A stretch of 64,000 nt of DNA from Piscinibacter sp. Its GTDB lineage: Bacteria; Pseudomonadota; Gammaproteobacteria; Burkholderiales; Burkholderiaceae_C. The notes beneath the pieces were generated by a model. The model saw only the letters and a list, made by a program, of their open reading frames with translations. It was not told the origin of the DNA and did no database searches. Both the position numbers and the translations under genes were made by a program. Shown in pieces: positions 30,120-42,311 of this stretch; within the stretch, counting starts at the first letter, position 1, and every line of letters starts with the position of its first letter. The stretch spans positions 1-64,000 of the forward strand of contig JAGOAS010000002.1 of NCBI GenBank assembly GCA_017983795.1. Reading direction: 5' to 3'.

Positions 30120-32438
<2,319 letters not shown>

Positions 32439-32548
32439 AGGTCGGTCGGAAGCGGCCGGCATTCTCGCGCAAACCCGGAGTCATCCCGCCCGGGCCGCCG
32501 CTGACGCTTGGTTACCATGCGCGCCACGCCCAGACGCCAGGGAGACCC

Positions 32549-34219
32549 ATGCTGTCCGACATCGAGATCGCGCAGGCCGCGCGGCTGAAGCCCATCCATG
32601 CGATCAGCGAGGCGCTGGGCATCCCCGAAGAAGCGCTCGACCCGCGCGGCCGCCACATCGGCAAGGTCGCCCAGCCCTGGCTGGACACGCTGGCCGAGCG
32701 GCCCGACGGCAAGCTGGTGCTGGTGACCGCGATCTCGCCCACGCCGGCCGGCGAAGGCAAGACCACCACCACCGTGGGCCTGGGCGACGCGCTCAACCGC
32801 ATCGGAGCGCGCGCCATCGTCTGCCTGCGCGAGCCCTCGCTCGGGCCGGTGTTCGGCCTGAAGGGCGGCGCGGCCGGCGGCGGCCACGCGCAGGTGGTGC
32901 CGATGGAGCAGATCAACCTGCACTTCACCGGCGACTTCGCCGCCATCGCGCTGGCGCACAACCTGCTCGCGGCGATGATCGACAACCACATCCACCACGG
33001 CAATGCGCTCGGCTTCGACGTGCGCCGCATGACCTGGAAGCGCGTGATCGACATGAACGATCGCGCGCTGCGCGACATCATCATCGGCCTGGGCGGCCCG
33101 GCACACGGTGCGCCGCGCGAGAGCGGCTTCGACATCGTCGTCGCCTCGGAGATCATGGCCATCCTGTGCCTGGCGACGAGCCTCTCCGACCTGAAGGAGC
33201 GCCTGGCGCGCATCGTGGTCGGCGAGACGGCCGAACACCGCCCCATCACCTGCGCGCAGCTGAAGGCGCAGGGCGCGATGGCCGCGCTGCTCAAGGACGC
33301 GATCTCGCCCAACCTGGTGCAGACGCTGGAGAACAACCCGGCCTTCGTGCATGGCGGGCCCTTCGCCAACATCGCGCATGGCTGCAACAGCGCGATCGCC
33401 ACGCGCGCCGCGCTCAAGCTGGCCGACTACGTGGTCACCGAGGCCGGCTTCGGCGCCGATCTCGGCGCCGAGAAGTTCATCGACATCAAGTGCCGCAAGA
33501 CCGGCCTGCGCCCCGACGCCGCGGTGCTGGTGGCCACCTGCCGCGCGCTCAAGTACCACGGCGGCATGGCGGTGGCCGATGTCGGCAAGGAAGACGTGGC
33601 GGCGCTCGAGCGCGGCCTGCCCAACCTGGAGCGCCACTTGCACAACGTGCAGGAGGTCTACGGCCTGCCCTGCGTGGTGGCGATCAACCACCGCGCGCAC
33701 GACACGGCGGCCGAGATCGAGCTGCTGACGCGGCGCGTCGAGGCGCTCGGCGCGCGGGCCGTGGTGGCGCGCCACTGGGCCGAGGGCGGCGCCGGCGCCG
33801 AGGATCTGGCGCGCGCGGTGGTGCAGGCCTGCGAGCAGCCGAACCGCTTCCAGTTCGTCTACGACGAGGCGCTGCCGCTGTGGCAGAAGGTCGAGGCGAT
33901 CGCAACCAAGATCTACGGCGCCGCCAGCGTCACCGCCTCGGCGCCGGTGCAGGAGCGCATCGAACGGCTGCAGGCCGCGGGCTACGGGCACTTCCCGGTG
34001 TGCATCGCCAAGACGCAGATGAGCTTCTCCACCCACGCGCGGCTGCGCGGTGCGCCCAGCGGCCACGTGCTCGACATCCGCGAAGTGCGGCTGGCCGCCG
34101 GTGCCGAATTCGTGGTGATGGTCTGCGGCGACATCATGACCCTGCCCGGCCTGCCCAAGGTGCCGGCCGCCGAGCTGATCGACATCGACTCGCAGGGGCG
34201 GATCAGCGGCCTGTCGTGA
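32549..34219 (+). CDS. fhs: Formate--tetrahydrofolate ligase
   Basis: This enzyme uses ATP to join formate to tetrahydrofolate, giving 10-formyl-THF for purine synthesis and one-carbon metabolism. The 556-residue protein has the P-loop [10 protein letters not shown] near 65-74, [37 protein letters not shown] (in part: [19 protein letters not shown], about 94-112), the [21 protein letters not shown] block (in part) and [18 protein letters not shown] lies 5 bases before the ATG. It has no folate gene neighbour; it is divergent from parC and convergent with the paralog pair. Confidence 0.97.
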
Positions 34220-34228
34220 AGGCCGGGT

Positions 34229-35911
34229 TCAGGCGCGCTGCAGCACGCGGATCAGCGCGTCGATCACGTCCTGCCCTTCGGGCGACTTGAGGCGATAGCG
34301 GCGCAGCGAGCGCAGCAGGTCGCCACGCTCGAGCGATTGCGTGTCGGCGCGCAGCAGCACATTGGCGATGGCGCGCTGCACCTGCAGCGAGCGCGTCGTC
34401 GTGAACAGCCCGGCGATCGCCTTCAGGCTGTGCGGGTCGGACACGCGCTGCTTGGCCAGTGCGTCCAGCGCGCGCACCTGTGCCTCGGGGCCGCTCAGCC
34501 GGCCGATGTCGGCGGCGATGGCCTGCACCTCGCCGGCGCCGGCCAGCGGGCGGTGGCGCAGGTAGGTCTGCGCGACCTCCACGTCGTCGGGGCGCGGGCT
34601 GGTCAGCGCGCGCACCGTGCGGTCGTGGGCCTCGCCGCTGCCCAGGCAGGCGAGCACCGCCGAATGCGCCACCTTCGAGGCATCGGCGGTGCCACCGGAG
34701 CGCACGCGCGCCAGCAGGCCGTCCTCGTGCGCGAGCGGCGAGGCGCACACCAGGTCGACCTCGTGCTTGCCCACCCCGTCGCGCGCCATGCGCGTCGTGA
34801 TCAGGCGGACGAACTCGTCCTGCTGCTGGGTATCGGTCAGCCAGCCGAGCTTGCGCGCCAGGTCGATCATGCGCGACTGCACCGATGCGAGGTCGGCATC
34901 GCGCGTGAAGGCGAGGTAGCGCTCGCGCGATTTCAGGTCGCGCCCGATCGCGTCGAAGGCCGCGGCCACGTCCGGCTGCAGGCGCTGCGAGACGCCCACC
35001 GAGCCGACGTAGCGCTCGAGGTGGTCGAGCAGCATGCGCACCTCGGTCACGTCGCGCCGCAGCACCTCGTGCACGAAGGCCATCTTCTGCGCCGTGCTGC
35101 GCCGGTCGTCGGCGAGGCTGCAGATGTCGTTGCGCAGGCCGATGTGCGGGTCGTCGGCGCCGATGCCCTTCACGCTCACCATCGACGTGGGGCCGAACGC
35201 GCCCAGCAAGGACGCGCTCGGCCGCCCGCTGGCCACCTCGCCGGCCGGCGCCGACTGCAGCACGCGCTCGAGCAAGGGGCCGGCGTAGCGGCCCAGCGGC
35301 GCCTTGGAGGCGAAGCCGTACAGCACCGGCACGTCCTTGAAGATCTGGCGCAGGCGGTCGCGGTTGCTCTCGCCATAGTGCTCGCTCAGCTTCGCCGCCG
35401 TGCGCTGCGCCTCGGGCGCCGACATGCCGGCACGCTGCAGGCTGCGCAGCACCTCGCTGCCGGCGCTGCGGCGCGGGTCGGTCTTCAGCGTGTTGCAGCC
35501 GAACAGGTAGACCTCCTTGAGCTGCGAGAACAGGCCGCTGCACGAGTCGCTGCATGAGGCCTGCTGCAGATCCTCGACCGGCAGCGCCTCGTGGTTCTCG
35601 AAGCGGTCGGTGTAGAACTCGCTGCCGTCGTCGAAGTGGCCGGAGATCACCAGCGCGTCGCAGCGCACGCCGCTGCGGCAGGCCTGCGCCCACCAGTCGG
35701 GCTGGCCGTGCTGCACCAGTTCGACGAAGCGGTACTCGCCCGCCGGCAACTGGCGCATCATCACGTCGCGCTCGTCGGGCGAGTTGATGGTGACCGTGCA
35801 GACCGTCTTCGGCGCGGCCGCCGCCCAGCCCGGCCAGGCCGCCGCGGCCAGCGCCACGGCCGGCAGCCAGCTTCGGGTCTTGGATCGCGCCACCGGCTCA
35901 CGCAGGCTCAT
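34229..35911 (-). CDS. Secreted His/Cys protein, paralog 1 (caspase/CHAT-like peptidase candidate)
   Basis: I do not recognise a named family. Of 560 residues, 1-33 look like a signal peptide (RSK...WLPAVALAAAAWPGWAAAA). The region 34-230 alternates strands and helices. A strand ending in His92 (ALVISGHFDDG) and a strand ending in Cys139 (EVYLFGCNTL) match the His/Cys dyad layout of clan CD peptidases (caspases, CHAT). Cysteines at 38, 78, 84, 120 and 124 are also kept in paralog 2 and could form disulfides. The rest is helical with HEAT-like units near the end. The start at 35911 was chosen for the signal peptide. It follows paralog 2 by 62 bp. Confidence 0.75.
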   Translation of the reverse strand: MSLREPVARSKTRSWLPAVALAAAAWPGWAAAAPKTVCTVTINSPDERDVMMRQLPAGEYRFVELVQHGQPDWWAQACRSGVRCDALVISGHFDDGSEFYTDRFENHEALPVEDLQQASCSDSCSGLFSQLKEVYLFGCNTLKTDPRRSAGSEVLRSLQRAGMSAPEAQRTAAKLSEHYGESNRDRLRQIFKDVPVLYGFASKAPLGRYAGPLLERVLQSAPAGEVASGRPSASLLGAFGPTSMVSVKGIGADDPHIGLRNDICSLADDRRSTAQKMAFVHEVLRRDVTEVRMLLDHLERYVGSVGVSQRLQPDVAAAFDAIGRDLKSRERYLAFTRDADLASVQSRMIDLARKLGWLTDTQQQDEFVRLITTRMARDGVGKHEVDLVCASPLAHEDGLLARVRSGGTADASKVAHSAVLACLGSGEAHDRTVRALTSPRPDDVEVAQTYLRHRPLAGAGEVQAIAADIGRLSGPEAQVRALDALAKQRVSDPHSLKAIAGLFTTTRSLQVQRAIANVLLRADTQSLERGDLLRSLRRYRLKSPEGQDVIDALIRVLQRA

Positions 35912-35973
35912 CGCTTCAGTCTTCCACAGCGCGCCGCCGCGGCGAAAACACATGTAACCACCGTACCGGCGGC

Positions 35974-37641
35974 TCAGCGCGCGTCGAGCAGAGCGATCAG
36001 CGCGTCGATGGTTCCGTCGCCGGCGCCGTTGCGTGCATCGCGCCTGAGCGTGATCAACGTTTGGCGCAAGCTCTGCGCAGGCAGCGCCGAACGATCGGCG
36101 CGCAGCAGGATGCCGGCGACGGCCGTCTGCACGGCCGCCGACGATGTCTGCCCGTACAGCGCCACCAGGCGCTCCAGCACCTCACGGTCGGACACATAGT
36201 GGCGGCCCAGAGCCTCCAGTGCGCGAATTTGTGCCGGCCCGGCGGACAGCGCGGAAATGCCTTCGGTCAAGCGGCGCAGCTCGCGCACGTCGTCGACCGG
36301 CCGCTGGCGCAGATAGGCCTGCGCCAGCTCGACCTGGGCCTCGTCGCTGCTGAGCAGCGCCTGCAAGGTGGCGGCACGATCCGCGGCGCTGCCCAGGCAG
36401 GCGCGCAAGGCGGCATGGCCGGTGCCGCCGGCCGTCTCGCCCGGCGCCGCGCCGGTGGCGAGCCGCCCGTTCAAGGCCCCGTCGGCGTTGGTGCGGCAGG
36501 CGAGGTGGATCTCCGGCACGCCCACCTCGGGCCGCGCATGCAGTTCGGCGAGCATCGCGATCAGTTCGTCGCGGCGCGCCTGCTCGGTCAGCCAGCCGAC
36601 GTCGCGCGCCAGATCGAACATCGCCACGCGCGTGTCGGGCCGGTCGGCGCGGCGCGCGTAGGCCAGCACGCGCTCGCGTGCCTCCTCGTCGCGTGCGATG
36701 GCCTCCAGCACCTGGGCCGCCAGCGGGTCGTCGCGCACGCCGGCGTCGAGCGATTCGCGCAGCCGCCGGATGCGGTCGAGGTACAGGCGCGCCTCGCCGA
36801 CGTGGCGTTGCAGCAGCCCCTGCACGAACGCGAGCTTGGCGGCCACCGGGCGACGCTCGTCGGCGAACTGGCACATGTCCAGGCGCGTCGCCCAGTTCGG
36901 ATCGGCCGGGGTGAGGCCCGACACGGCGGTCAGCCCGAACGGCGTGAAGGCCGACAGCAGCCGGCTGCTCGTGCGGCCGCGCCCGATATCGCGATCGCCC
37001 GCCTGCTGGAAGTAGCGGTCGAGCACGCGGCTGGCGATCGGCCCGACCGGCGCCGTCGACGAGAAGCCGTAGATGGTCGGCACGCCGTCGAACACCTGGC
37101 GCATGCGGTCGCGGCTGCTCTCGCCCTGCGCCGCGGTCAGCGACTTCAGCTCGCGTTCGGCCTGCTCCTTCGGCACGCCCTCGCGCACCAGGCTGCGCAC
37201 CACCTCGGCGGTCGCACCGCTGTGCGGCTCCGGGTTGAGCGTGTTGCAGCCGAACAGGTAGACCTCCTGCAGGCGCGAGAACAGCGTCGGGCAGGAGCCG
37301 CTGCAGGAGACACGCTCGAGCTCGCTCACCGGCAGGAACTCGCGCGCGTCGAGGCTGTCGGGGAAGAATTCGTTGCCGCCGTCGTAGTGCGCCGAGATCA
37401 CGAGGATGTCGCACGCGACGCCGGCGCGGCAGGAGGAATCGAGCCAGTCGGCACGGCCGCGCTCGACCAGTTCGACGAAGCGGTAGTTCTCGTTGCCAAG
37501 GTGGCGGCGGAAGCTCTCCTTCTCGTCGGGCGAGTTGACGGTGATGGTGCACACCGTCCTGGGCGCGGCACCCGCCGCGGCGAGTAGCAGCGCCAGCACG
37601 GCCGCCGCCAGGCATTCCTTCAACCCACGCACGGCCTGCAT
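35974..37641 (-). CDS. Secreted His/Cys protein, paralog 2 (caspase/CHAT-like peptidase candidate)
   Basis: A 555-residue homolog of the downstream gene along its whole length. It has a signal peptide (about 1-26, LAAAVLALLLAAAGAAP), TVCTITVNSPDEK, DILVISAHYDGG with His85, SCSGSCPTLFSRL and EVYLFGCNTLNPEP with Cys132. The His-Cys distance is 47 residues in both proteins. The first residue after the shared His region varies, but H-x-D-x-G and F-G-C-N-T-L are invariant. The C-terminal half is helical. The start is 9 bp after the stop of the lytic transglycosylase gene, so the genes are co-transcribed. The peptidase assignment is inference from motif layout. Confidence 0.75.
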   Translation of the reverse strand: MQAVRGLKECLAAAVLALLLAAAGAAPRTVCTITVNSPDEKESFRRHLGNENYRFVELVERGRADWLDSSCRAGVACDILVISAHYDGGNEFFPDSLDAREFLPVSELERVSCSGSCPTLFSRLQEVYLFGCNTLNPEPHSGATAEVVRSLVREGVPKEQAERELKSLTAAQGESSRDRMRQVFDGVPTIYGFSSTAPVGPIASRVLDRYFQQAGDRDIGRGRTSSRLLSAFTPFGLTAVSGLTPADPNWATRLDMCQFADERRPVAAKLAFVQGLLQRHVGEARLYLDRIRRLRESLDAGVRDDPLAAQVLEAIARDEEARERVLAYARRADRPDTRVAMFDLARDVGWLTEQARRDELIAMLAELHARPEVGVPEIHLACRTNADGALNGRLATGAAPGETAGGTGHAALRACLGSAADRAATLQALLSSDEAQVELAQAYLRQRPVDDVRELRRLTEGISALSAGPAQIRALEALGRHYVSDREVLERLVALYGQTSSAAVQTAVAGILLRADRSALPAQSLRQTLITLRRDARNGAGDGTIDALIALLDAR

Positions 37642-37650
37642 GCGACGGCC

Positions 37651-38358
37651 CTAGCGCGCGGGCTGCAGCGTCATGCCGGTGGCGCGGCGCGCCTGGCGCT
37701 CCTGCAGCAGCGCCCAGTAGAGCTCCAGCACCAGCTGCACATGGGCGCGCGTCTCGGCGATGTCGGGCAGCCGGCCGCCGTGGCGGCGCACCGTGCCCTC
37801 GCCGGCATTCCAGGCCGCCAGCGCGATGTCGATGCCGCCATGGCGCCGGATCAGGTCGGCGAGCATGCGTGCGCCCGTATTCACGTTGACCTGTGCATCG
37901 AGCAGGCGCGTCTCTGCCGGCGTGCGCCGCTCGGCGGCGGTGCCGTAGCGATCGGCCGCCACCGGGGTGATCTGCATCAGCCCGATCGCGCCGCGCGGCG
38001 ACACGGCCTTGGCATTGAAGCCCGATTCGACGGTGATCACCGCCTTGAGCAGTTCCTCGTCGACGCCGTGCTTCTCGGCCGCCGCGCGCAGCAGCGGCGC
38101 GAGCGCCTTCACCTCGGGCGCGATCTCCAGCCACAGCAGCAGGCCGTCGGCGCGGTCGGTCTTGCCGGGCACGGCTTCGCTGCCGCTGCCGCCCGGCGCA
38201 TCGCCGAGCACGCGCCGGTAGCGCGAATCGACCTGCTGCGGCGCGACGTGCGCCATGCCCTGGCCGTCGACATAGGCCCAGACCTCGGCGCGCGCGGCGG
38301 CAGGCAGCAGCGCGATCGCTGCGGCGGCCGCGAGCGCTGGCACCGGCCACGCGCGCAT
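37651..38358 (-). CDS. Lytic transglycosylase (SLT domain) with N-terminal DUF4124-like segment
   Basis: A 235-residue exported enzyme that cleaves peptidoglycan glycan strands. Residues 1-24 form a signal peptide; 25-50 (EVWAYVDGQGMAHVAPQQVD) resemble a short DUF4124-like segment; the SLT domain follows with catalytic Glu111 in ITVESGFNAKAVSPRGAIGLMQI (in part: VESGFNAKAVSPRGAIGLMQ) and AAWNAGEGTVRRHGG. The start shares one base with the GNAT stop (TGATG), so translation is coupled. It leads into the two secreted paralogs, which suggests a joint envelope role. Confidence 0.9.
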   Translation of the reverse strand: MRAWPVPALAAAAAIALLPAAARAEVWAYVDGQGMAHVAPQQVDSRYRRVLGDAPGGSGSEAVPGKTDRADGLLLWLEIAPEVKALAPLLRAAAEKHGVDEELLKAVITVESGFNAKAVSPRGAIGLMQITPVAADRYGTAAERRTPAETRLLDAQVNVNTGARMLADLIRRHGGIDIALAAWNAGEGTVRRHGGRLPDIAETRAHVQLVLELYWALLQERQARRATGMTLQPAR

Positions 38359-38879
38359 CAGGCCGCTCCCTGCTCCCGCGCGCGTTGCAGCGCCGCGTGC
38401 TCCGGCTCGAGCAGCGACATCACGATCAGCGAATCCCAGCCCTCTGCGGTGCGCACGCTCTCGCGCAAGCGCCCTTCCTCGACGAAGCCTTCGCTGCGGT
38501 AGAGCGCCAGGGCGCGGTCGTTGAGCGATTTCACGTCGAGCCAGAAGCGGTGCGCGCCGAGGTCGCGGAAGGCCATCTGCGCCAGCAGCCGCACGCAGGC
38601 GCGGCCCAGGCCGTGGCCCTGGTCTTCCGGCGTCAGCACCAGGCGCTTGAGCTCCACCGAGCGGTGCGGGTTGCGGCAGCCCTGCAGGATGACGAAGCCG
38701 ACGCGCTCGTTGCCCGCACCCGTCTCGACGATGAAGTGGCGGAAGTCGGGGAAGCGGATCGCGCCCTCGTGCTGCGGGCGCTCCCAGGGCGTGATGAAGG
38801 GCAGGTTGGCCTGGTCCTGTTCGACCGAGATGACGAAGTCGAGGTCCGACAGCATCGTCGGCCGCAGACGAATGTTCAT
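38358..38879 (-). CDS. GNAT-family N-acetyltransferase
   Basis: A 173-residue acetyltransferase of the RimI/RimJ type. The acetyl-CoA-binding block LKRLVLTPEDQGHGLGRACVRLL (in part: VLTPEDQGHGLGRACVR) is at about 78-97, and the C-terminal NDRALALYRSEGFVEEGRLRE is typical of GNAT motif B. The substrate is unknown; both ribosomal proteins and small metabolites are possible. It is the first gene of the operon that runs through the lytic transglycosylase and the two secreted paralogs. A hairpin repeat begins 27 bp upstream of its start. Confidence 0.88.
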   Translation of the reverse strand: MNIRLRPTMLSDLDFVISVEQDQANLPFITPWERPQHEGAIRFPDFRHFIVETGAGNERVGFVILQGCRNPHRSVELKRLVLTPEDQGHGLGRACVRLLAQMAFRDLGAHRFWLDVKSLNDRALALYRSEGFVEEGRLRESVRTAEGWDSLIVMSLLEPEHAALQRAREQGAA

Positions 38880-38905
38880 GCCGTTTCGCGCTCAATCGCA
38901 TGGAT

Positions 38906-38977
38906 CCCGTTCGGGCTGAGCTTGTCGAAGCCCACCGCGTGCCATGCACGGCCCTTCGACAAGCTCAGGGCGAGCGG
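38906..38977. repeat. Dispersed hairpin repeat, copy 2
   Basis: The left arm CCCGTTCGGGCTGAGCTTGT (38906-38925) continues to GTCGAAGC. The right arm (38952-38977) reads CCCTTCGACAAGCTCAGGGC then GAGCGG. It lies between the parE stop and the GNAT start, so transcripts from parE would have to cross it to reach the GNAT operon, or that operon's promoter lies within it. Confidence 0.85.
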
Positions 38978-39003
38978 AGTCTGATGATCGAGGCGACTTC
39001 GTA

Positions 39004-40983
<1,980 letters not shown>

Positions 40984-41018
40984 GCAGAGGATTCTAGGAG
41001 CGGCGAGAATGCCGCCCC

Positions 41019-42311
41019 ATGAGCAACGATCGTCTGCGGGCCGAGCGCCGGGCCGCTCCCAAGCCGGCCCGCATCCCCTCGGGGGATCGACCGACGTACT
41101 CGTCGGGCGAGGGGCTGTCAATGACCCAGGTGCTGCTGTGCGGCGCCGCGGTCGTCACGCTGTCCATGGGCATACGCCACGGCTTCGGCCTGTGGCTGCA
41201 GCCGATCACCATGGATCGTGGCTGGACGCGCGAGACCTTCGCCTTCGCGCTCGCCGTGCAGAACATCGCCTGGGGCATCGCCGGCCCCTTCGCCGGCGCG
41301 CTGGCCGATCGTTTCGGCGCCTTCAAGGTGCTGATCGTCGGCAGCCTGCTGTATTCGCTCGGCCTGGTGACCATGGCGCTCTCGACCACGGGCCTGGCCT
41401 TCGCCGGCAGCGCCGGCCTGCTGCTGGGCATGGCGCAGTCGGGCACCACCTACGCGGTGGTCTACGGCGTGATCGGCCGCAACGTCGCGCCCGAGAAGCG
41501 CAGCTGGGCGATGGGCGTGGCCGCGGCGGCCGGCTCCTTCGGCCAGTTCCTGATGGTGCCGGTGGAGAACTGGCTGATCGGCGGCTTCGGCTGGCAGTCG
41601 GCCCTGTTCGTGCTCGGTTGCCTGGCGCTGGCCATCGTGCCGCTGGCCTTCGGGCTGAAGGAGCCGCCGCGCACCGCGGTGACCGCGCAGCAAAGCCTCG
41701 GCGCCGCGCTGCGCGAGGCCTTCGGCTACCCGAGCTTCCGCTGGCTGATGGCGGGCTATTTCGTGTGCGGCTTCCAGGTCGTCTTCATCGGCGTGCACAT
41801 GCCCAGCTACCTGAAGGACCACGGCCTGACGCCCAATGTCGCGACCACCGCGCTGGCGCTGATCGGCCTGTTCAACGTCTTCGGCACCTACGGCGCCGGC
41901 GTGCTCGGCCAGCGCCTGCCGAAGAAATACATCCTCTCGACCATCTACCTGCTGCGCTCGATCGCAATCGTGGTCTTCCTCGCCGTGCCGCTGACGCCGG
42001 CGAGCGTCTATGTGTTCTCGGCGGTGATGGGCCTGCTGTGGCTGTCCACCGTGCCGCCCACCAACGCGGTGATCGCGCAGATCTTCGGCGTGCAGTACCT
42101 CTCGATGCTGGGCGGCTTCGTCTTCCTCAGCCACCAGGTCGGCAGCTTCCTGGGCGTGTGGCTGGGCGGCAAGCTCTACGACGCCACCGGCAACTACGAC
42201 ACCGTCTGGTGGATCGCGGTCGCGCTGGGCGTGTTCGCGGCCATCGCCAACCTGCCGGTGAAGGAGCGCGCCATCCAGCGCGCGCCGCTCCCGGCCGGCG
42301 CCGCGGCATGA
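41019..42311 (+). CDS. MFS transporter, monocarboxylate/oxalate-formate-like
   Basis: A 430-residue transporter with 12 hydrophobic segments. LSMGIRHGFGLWLQPITMDRGWTRETFAFA (in part: GLWLQPITMDRGWTRETFA, about 57-75) and LADRFGAFKVLIVGSLL near 96-112 are typical of monocarboxylate-porter-like MFS proteins. The substrate is unknown. The start is uncertain: the ATG at 41019 adds 34 polar residues and leaves only 35 bp to the divergent parE start, while the ATG at 41121 is preceded by GAGGGG and starts just before the first membrane helix. The second could be the real one. Confidence 0.88.
   Translation: MSNDRLRAERRAAPKPARIPSGDRPTYSSGEGLSMTQVLLCGAAVVTLSMGIRHGFGLWLQPITMDRGWTRETFAFALAVQNIAWGIAGPFAGALADRFGAFKVLIVGSLLYSLGLVTMALSTTGLAFAGSAGLLLGMAQSGTTYAVVYGVIGRNVAPEKRSWAMGVAAAAGSFGQFLMVPVENWLIGGFGWQSALFVLGCLALAIVPLAFGLKEPPRTAVTAQQSLGAALREAFGYPSFRWLMAGYFVCGFQVVFIGVHMPSYLKDHGLTPNVATTALALIGLFNVFGTYGAGVLGQRLPKKYILSTIYLLRSIAIVVFLAVPLTPASVYVFSAVMGLLWLSTVPPTNAVIAQIFGVQYLSMLGGFVFLSHQVGSFLGVWLGGKLYDATGNYDTVWWIAVALGVFAAIANLPVKERAIQRAPLPAGAAA

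What the first reader, a model, noticed from the sequence alone, without database searches (positions are those of the whole stretch)
34229..37641. Tandem secreted paralogs with a conserved His/Cys dyad: possible new periplasmic caspase/CHAT-like peptidases
Two neighbouring proteins of about 555-560 residues share signal peptides, H-x-D-x-G (His92 / His85) after a hydrophobic strand, and F-G-C-N-T-L (Cys139 / Cys132) after a second strand, exactly 47 residues apart in both. This strand-His, strand-Cys layout is that of clan CD cysteine peptidases (established for caspase, CHAT, gingipain and legumain families), though the usual His-Gly is not present. Clan CD domains fused to a helical-repeat tail and exported are unusual. 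The peptidase function is inferred; export and the shared motifs are seen directly.
Basis: partly seen in the sequence, partly recalled or inferred. Interest (0 to 1): 0.85.

Follow-up and report, generated by a model that had tools for sequence, protein, structure and literature searches.

The report
Exported caspase/CHAT-like protein pair
Two neighbouring bacterial genes encode a matched pair of probably exported proteins whose front half resembles a caspase-type protein-cutting enzyme and whose back half is a helical-repeat arm; the pair fits no family model searched here, and protein cutting is predicted but not shown.

Summary
Window 34229-35911(-) (560 aa) and 35974-37641(-) (555 aa) are 43% identical tandem paralogs with signal-peptide-like starts and His92/Cys139 and His85/Cys132, 47 residues apart. 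Pfam, NCBIfam, PADLOC and PDB sequence searches gave nothing at E <= 0.001. The His and Cys are invariant in 32 of 32 aligned proteins and kept in two distant relatives. AlphaFold2 gives an alpha/beta domain plus a helical-repeat tail (pLDDT 89.6; domain alone 84.2). Foldseek ranks a SAVED-CHAT protease first, with separase and caspases among the most probable hits, but no E-value is at or below 0.001 and TM-scores are under 0.5. Profile alignment puts both residues on the His and Cys of CHAT proteins, above 598 column shuffles; second genes alone do not exceed them. A tree shows one old duplication, with both copies kept adjacent. Best reading: a new exported clan-CD (CHAT-like) peptidase family acting as a two-protein unit. 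Fold is fairly well supported; activity, substrate and joint action are inferred.

The parts
35974..37641 (-). first gene of the pair (P0002, 555 aa): signal peptide + CHAT/caspase-like domain + helical-repeat tail
34229..35911 (-). second gene of the pair (P0001, 560 aa): same layout, 43% identical
37567..37641 (-). P0002 putative signal peptide, about residues 1-25 (cleavage site approximate)
   Evidence: sequence; crude rule
35813..35911 (-). P0001 putative signal peptide, about residues 1-33 (cleavage site approximate)
   Evidence: sequence; crude rule
36907..37566 (-). P0002 clan CD-like alpha/beta domain (residues 26-245)
   Evidence: model m3857cfffc9ae, pLDDT 84.2; Foldseek
35162..35812 (-). 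P0001 clan CD-like alpha/beta domain (residues 34-250)
   Evidence: model m621fe579e80c
35977..36906 (-). P0002 helical-repeat (HEAT/ARM-like) tail; not modelled itself
   Evidence: by alignment to P0001, whose tail is modelled
34232..35161 (-). P0001 helical-repeat (HEAT/ARM-like) tail, 21 helices of four or more residues
   Evidence: DSSP of the model; armadillo/HEAT proteins lead the full-length Foldseek list
37387..37389 (-). P0002 His85 codon, putative catalytic His
   Evidence: invariant; aligned with CHAT His
37246..37248 (-). P0002 Cys132 codon, putative nucleophile
   Evidence: invariant; aligned with CHAT Cys
35636..35638 (-). P0001 His92 codon, putative catalytic His
   Evidence: invariant; aligned with CHAT His
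35495..35497 (-). P0001 Cys139 codon, putative nucleophile
   Evidence: invariant; aligned with CHAT Cys

Best explanation
The two genes encode an exported pair of clan CD (CHAT-like) cysteine endopeptidases. Each protein crosses the inner membrane by the Sec route and loses its signal peptide (inferred). It folds into an N-terminal caspase/CHAT-type alpha/beta domain in which a His after one strand and a Cys after the next core strand form the catalytic dyad (fold and residue positions predicted, chemistry inferred). The HEAT/ARM-like tail binds a substrate or partner and presents it to that dyad (inferred, by analogy with separase and Raptor, recalled). The paralogs come from one old duplication and are kept side by side, so they most likely act as a unit, for example as a heterodimer or with one activating the other (inferred). 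The most likely job is a specific, regulated cut of an envelope or extracellular protein rather than bulk digestion (inferred from the sporadic distribution and adaptor-like tail).
For: His and Cys invariant in 32 of 32 and kept in the distant relatives L024 and L025/L150. AlphaFold2 pLDDT 89.6 full length and 84.2 domain, with the strand-His, strand-Cys order of clan CD. Foldseek on the domain: SAVED-CHAT 8tl0_D rank 1, probability 1.00; human separase 9hn0_B and 9hm7 0.97; caspase-11 6ns7 0.90-0.96; CASP1 8wra 0.82. hhalign to 24 CHAT sequences: score 30.1, single-comparison P 0.0011, His and Cys in register; best of 300 query shuffles 23.4 and of 298 completed target shuffles 20.5; first genes alone score 33.8, P 2.4e-4. 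Tree: one branch with 100/100 support separates 15 first from 15 second genes. All 10 genomes with a match among 250 of the family carry an adjacent pair. Apart from the pair, no clustered family is seen in more than 4 of 17 neighbourhoods.
Against: No activity data. No Foldseek match at E <= 0.001; TM-scores to clan CD entries 0.30-0.47 by query length; response regulators at ranks 2-4, probability 0.57-0.66. hhalign probability to CHAT only 20.6% (11.3% with A2). Second genes alone score 19.8 (P 0.041), below the best shuffles of the joint profile. C14 (25 rows) and C25 (7 partial rows) profiles do not match. The His-Gly usual in clan CD is absent. Coordinates could not be read, so the His-Cys distance is unmeasured. 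One copy in each of G389, G615 and G1206 leaves about 21-26 profile positions after the Cys unmatched. Export rests on a crude rule. Adjacency may reflect linkage rather than joint action.
Confidence: 0.6

Rival explanations
1. Clan CD fold but not a peptidase: an exported pseudo-enzyme or binding module in which the domain is a scaffold, as in Raptor (recalled), with the His and Cys kept for structure or ligand binding.
For: No catalytic evidence; His-Gly missing; entries that hold Raptor/Kog1 (7pqh, 6bcu_W, 5wbk) appear in the full-length Foldseek list, with TM-scores of 0.08-0.19.
Against: Both His and Cys are invariant in both paralogs and kept in the distant relatives, while neighbouring motif residues change.
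Confidence: 0.2
2. One paralog is the active peptidase and the other a regulator that keeps the motif by descent.
For: First and second genes are separated on the tree; the second genes match CHAT more weakly (P 0.041 against 2.4e-4, 15 against 17 rows).
Against: The dyad is kept equally in both.
Confidence: 0.25
3. An unrelated alpha/beta (Rossmann-like or receiver-like) fold; the clan CD resemblance is generic.
For: Response regulators and other Rossmann-like proteins are scattered through the Foldseek lists; no E-value at or below 0.001.
Against: Of the seven shown PDB hits with probability >= 0.90 six are clan CD; a profile of 30 receiver domains scores 16.2 against 30.1 for CHAT.
Confidence: 0.13
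4. A secreted toxin or defence effector rather than a housekeeping or signalling protease.
For: Sporadic distribution (10 of 250 family genomes; 6 of 300 order genomes); CHAT proteases occur in CRISPR systems (PMC11417357, passages).
Against: No PADLOC match, no plasmid match for P0001, no viral-contig relative of A2, no widely shared neighbour.
Confidence: 0.12

Closest known systems
CHAT domain proteases (Pfam PF12770; SAVED-CHAT 8tl0, TPR-CHAT/Csx29)
   Same: best structural match and the only one of four tested families whose profile stands out, with His and Cys in register; a repeat domain in the same chain, as in TPR-CHAT (abstracts in the listings)
   Different: no PF12770 hit at E <= 1 in 32 members; probably exported; His-Gly replaced by mostly His-Phe/Tyr; HEAT/ARM-like tail C-terminal
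Separase (peptidase family C50)
   Same: fold match, probability 0.97; protease domain plus helical repeats
   Different: its protease domain is C-terminal (abstract in the listing); eukaryotic; no sequence match in PDB searches
Caspases and prokaryotic metacaspases/orthocaspases (C14, PF00656)
   Same: fold match to caspase-11 and CASP1; a HEAT-repeat plus metacaspase protein and metacaspases with N-terminal helices that may be signal peptides are described (PMC3501461, passages)
   Different: no profile similarity; no PF00656 hit at E <= 1
Gingipain (C25), clostripain (C11), legumain (C13)
   Same: clan CD families (PMC4357240, section 3 read); exported or lysosomal members (recalled)
   Different: no match to a small C25 profile of 7 partial rows; C11 and C13 were not compared by profile

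Membership tests
Clan CD cysteine peptidases | His then Cys dyad in that order, each just after a core beta strand | tested here: met
   His59 follows strand 53-57 and Cys106 follows strand 100-104 in the model; both invariant
Clan CD cysteine peptidases | caspase-type alpha/beta/alpha fold | tested here: inconclusive
   best matches by probability are clan CD, but none at E <= 0.001 and TM-scores under 0.5
Clan CD cysteine peptidases | Cys-dependent peptide bond hydrolysis | not testable with these tools
   needs an assay
CHAT (PF12770) | match to the family profile over its cut-off | tested here: not met
   not among the 23 families matched at E <= 1 by any of 32 members
CHAT (PF12770) | profile-profile similarity with His and Cys in register | tested here: met
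   joint profile 30.1 above 598 shuffles, His/Cys aligned; second genes alone 19.8, not above them
Peptidase C14 (PF00656) | match to the family profile | tested here: not met
   not matched at E <= 1; hhalign score 14.6, at shuffle level
Peptidase C25 gingipain (PF01364) | match to the family profile | tested here: not met
   not matched at E <= 1; hhalign score 13.0 with 7 partial rows
Separase (C50) | sequence profile of the separase catalytic domain | tested here: not met
   no separase family among the 23 matched at E <= 1; no profile comparison was made

The most novel reading that the evidence does not exclude
A bacterial exported two-subunit 'separase/Raptor-like' switch: a fixed heteropair of clan CD peptidases with HEAT/ARM arms, working outside the cytoplasm to make one specific regulated cut in the cell envelope, and founding a new peptidase family close to CHAT.
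Probability: 0.25. Interest if true: 0.8.

Novelty: new variant of a known kind. Interest (0 to 1): 0.6.

Why it matters
If the peptidase reading holds, this is a family without a Pfam or NCBIfam model that takes a caspase/CHAT-type enzyme out of the cytoplasm, joins it to an adaptor-like repeat arm, and keeps it as a duplicated pair in several betaproteobacterial lineages. It would add an exported, paired member to the CHAT-separase-Raptor group and give a tractable bacterial case for asking how repeat arms steer caspase-type enzymes.

Tried and rejected
Sequence libraries gave nothing at E <= 0.001: Pfam and NCBIfam for both proteins, Pfam for 32 members (23 scattered families at E <= 1, best ERAP1_C 0.0013 and XdhC_C 0.0017 in one or two members each, judged chance or repeat-like), Pfam for two distant relatives, NCBIfam and Pfam for 19 domain rows (a non-significant Peptidase_C80 match, E 0.3, lies at the Cys strand of P0001), PADLOC for three proteins, PDB sequences.

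Operon-partner idea rejected: P0002 starts 9 bases after an SLT transglycosylase gene, with topoisomerase IV-type genes, GNAT and FTHFS genes nearby, but within the flanks held that order recurs only in L003, 1 of 16 loci. ORF clustering over 17 neighbourhoods gave the pair and its antisense or shifted-frame shadows as the widely shared clusters; outside the pair the widest cluster spans 4 loci. Flanks differ in length and some are cut by contig ends.

Mobile-element idea: no match of P0001 in plasmids; 10 viral-contig stretches matched a pattern from A2 but none encoded a relative.

Metacaspase or gingipain membership: not supported. For hhalign I dropped four CHAT loci (L073, L077, L078, L079) and five C14 loci (L084, L098, L099, L100, L108) as partial or stop-bearing. 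Two of 300 target shuffles failed. The register was read from printed alignments for the joint profile and the second genes; for the first genes and A2 only the matched ranges were seen. In one search two second-gene N-termini (L003, L005) were started in mid-frame and two rows (L009, L012) use a TTG/GTG start.

Wider relatives: 1 of 369 class genomes (itself), 6 of 300 order genomes, 2 of 398 phylum genomes, 10 of 250 family genomes, and with the L025 protein 2 of 200 order genomes.

Full report
Observation. The two ORFs are real and correctly placed on the minus strand: P0001, window 34229-35911, 560 aa, and P0002, 35974-37641, 555 aa. They are 43% identical over 529 columns and are the only two matches to P0001 in their own genome at E <= 0.001. 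His92/Cys139 and His85/Cys132 are 47 residues apart in both. GC is 0.69-0.72 in every 4-kb block of the window.

Relatives. One genome-contig scan matched 54 stretches, of which 16 encode a relative; their record titles name betaproteobacterial groups, Piscinibacter aquaticus being closest (75% for P0002, 86% for P0001). Both genes are present in 15 of 16 loci, once cut off by a contig end (L011); L014 (Ideonella alba) shows one gene only in the 11.4 kb held. All 10 family genomes with a match have two adjacent genes on one strand; of the 6 in the order, 4 do and 2 hold a single distant relative: L024, cut by a contig end, and L025/L150, a 444-aa ORF without the long tail.

Conservation. In A1 (32 mature sequences) H59 and C106 are invariant. 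In A2 (19 domain rows with both distant relatives) only 17 columns are invariant and both residues are among them; the N-terminal part of the L025 row is poorly aligned. Six further Cys residues (C5, C51, C87, C231, C356, C389) are invariant in A1, which would suit disulfides in an exported protein; that is inference.

Export. A Lys/Arg-bearing start, a hydrophobic stretch and an A-x-A-like site were found in 31 of 32 N-termini by my own crude rule; the miss (L008 first gene) lacks a Lys/Arg. By eye no lipoprotein box is shared. Periplasm and beyond cannot be told apart.

Structure. AlphaFold2 with A1 gives mean pLDDT 89.6 and pTM 0.84: an alpha/beta domain (mature residues 1 to about 217) followed by 21 helices. 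The domain alone, P0002 first, gives 84.2 and 0.80. His59 follows strand 53-57 and Cys106 follows strand 100-104. Foldseek with the domain against the PDB (1374 matches at E <= 10, 50 shown): rank 1 the SAVED-CHAT protease 8tl0_D (E 1.5e-3, probability 1.00, TM 0.44 by query), ranks 7-8 human separase (0.97), ranks 10-12 caspase-11 (0.90-0.96), rank 18 CASP1 (0.82). Of the 50 shown 7 are clan CD; of the 7 with probability at least 0.90, 6 are. None reaches E 0.001, and response regulators hold ranks 2-4 with probability 0.57-0.66. Against viral models caspase or clostripain entries are 4 of the 50 shown, none significant. The full-length model finds mainly armadillo/HEAT proteins in the 50 shown, with Raptor at rank 24 and entries whose matched chains I take to be Raptor/Kog1 at ranks 3, 15 and 22, and the CHAT protease at rank 38 with probability 1.00.

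Sequence link to CHAT. I took CHAT (PF12770), metacaspase (PF00656), gingipain (PF01364) and receiver (PF00072) sequences from sampled genomes and ran hhalign. The joint profile A3 against 24 CHAT rows scored 30.1 (single-comparison P 0.0011, HHsuite probability 20.6%), and the alignment placed the invariant His on the His of a CHAT H-G motif and the invariant Cys on the Cys of an A-C motif; that these are the CHAT catalytic residues is recalled. A2 scored 28.0 over the same CHAT range; the reversed A3 16.5. C14 (25 rows) scored 14.6, C25 (7 partial rows) 13.0, receivers (30 rows) 16.2, all about shuffle level. The best of 300 column shuffles of A3 scored 23.4, of 298 completed shuffles of CHAT 20.5. 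First genes alone (17 rows) scored 33.8, P 2.4e-4, over the same ranges; second genes alone (15 rows) scored only 19.8, P 0.041, below the best shuffles of the joint profile, though with His and Cys in the same register. This is modest but specific support for CHAT as the nearest known group, carried mainly by the first genes.

A fixed pair. On the tree of 32 proteins one branch with 100/100 support separates the 15 first from the 15 second genes (two rows, L011 and L014, were not counted and lie with the first genes); each label needs one change against a mean of about 10 in 500 shuffles. The simplest account is one duplication older than the sampled lineages, after which the copies stayed adjacent and in order. 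No other gene family is widely shared around them, the widest spanning 4 of 17 neighbourhoods; the local SLT and topoisomerase-gene setting is shared only with L003.

Mechanism. Seen or predicted with fair support: export-type N-terminus, clan CD-like domain with an invariant His/Cys pair, repeat tail, old heteropair. Inferred: peptidase activity, substrate presentation by the tail, joint action of the two proteins, an envelope substrate. The main rivals are a pseudo-enzyme scaffold and an active/regulator split between the paralogs.

Known systems. Clan CD is assigned by the order, type and tertiary setting of the His/Cys dyad (PMC4357240, section 3 read, passages). HEAT repeats joined to a metacaspase, and 46 metacaspases with a single N-terminal helix that may be a signal peptide, are already described (PMC3501461, passages), so neither trait alone is new. 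Five literature searches (listings and starts of abstracts) showed no paper whose title or abstract describes this exported pair; the library holds open-licence papers only, so this is not proof of absence.

Noticed in passing
L152 (G1206), L151 (G389), L028 (G615): One copy of the pair in each of these genomes leaves about 21-26 profile positions (between about 117 and 144) unmatched shortly after the Cys; this stretch has low confidence in the domain-only model but not in the full-length one.
   Followed up: partly
L150:5404-6738: A distant single relative with S-G-H and LFGC motifs 40 residues apart and no long tail, next to a gene that looks like lgt (recalled, not searched); its true start probably lies inside the frame at a signal-peptide-like stretch.
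   Followed up: partly
L155:6895-12627 (own genome, contig 32): The genome also has a conventional CHAT protein in a 1911-codon frame that also passes the PF00656 cut-off; by eye no signal peptide near its start.
   Followed up: partly
window 30120-41022: Topoisomerase IV-type A and B subunit genes lie either side of fhs, the pair, an SLT gene and a GNAT gene; the same order is kept in Piscinibacter aquaticus, L003.
   Followed up: partly
L014: Ideonella alba shows a first-type gene alone in the stretch held, the only full exception to the pair among 16 loci.
   Followed up: no
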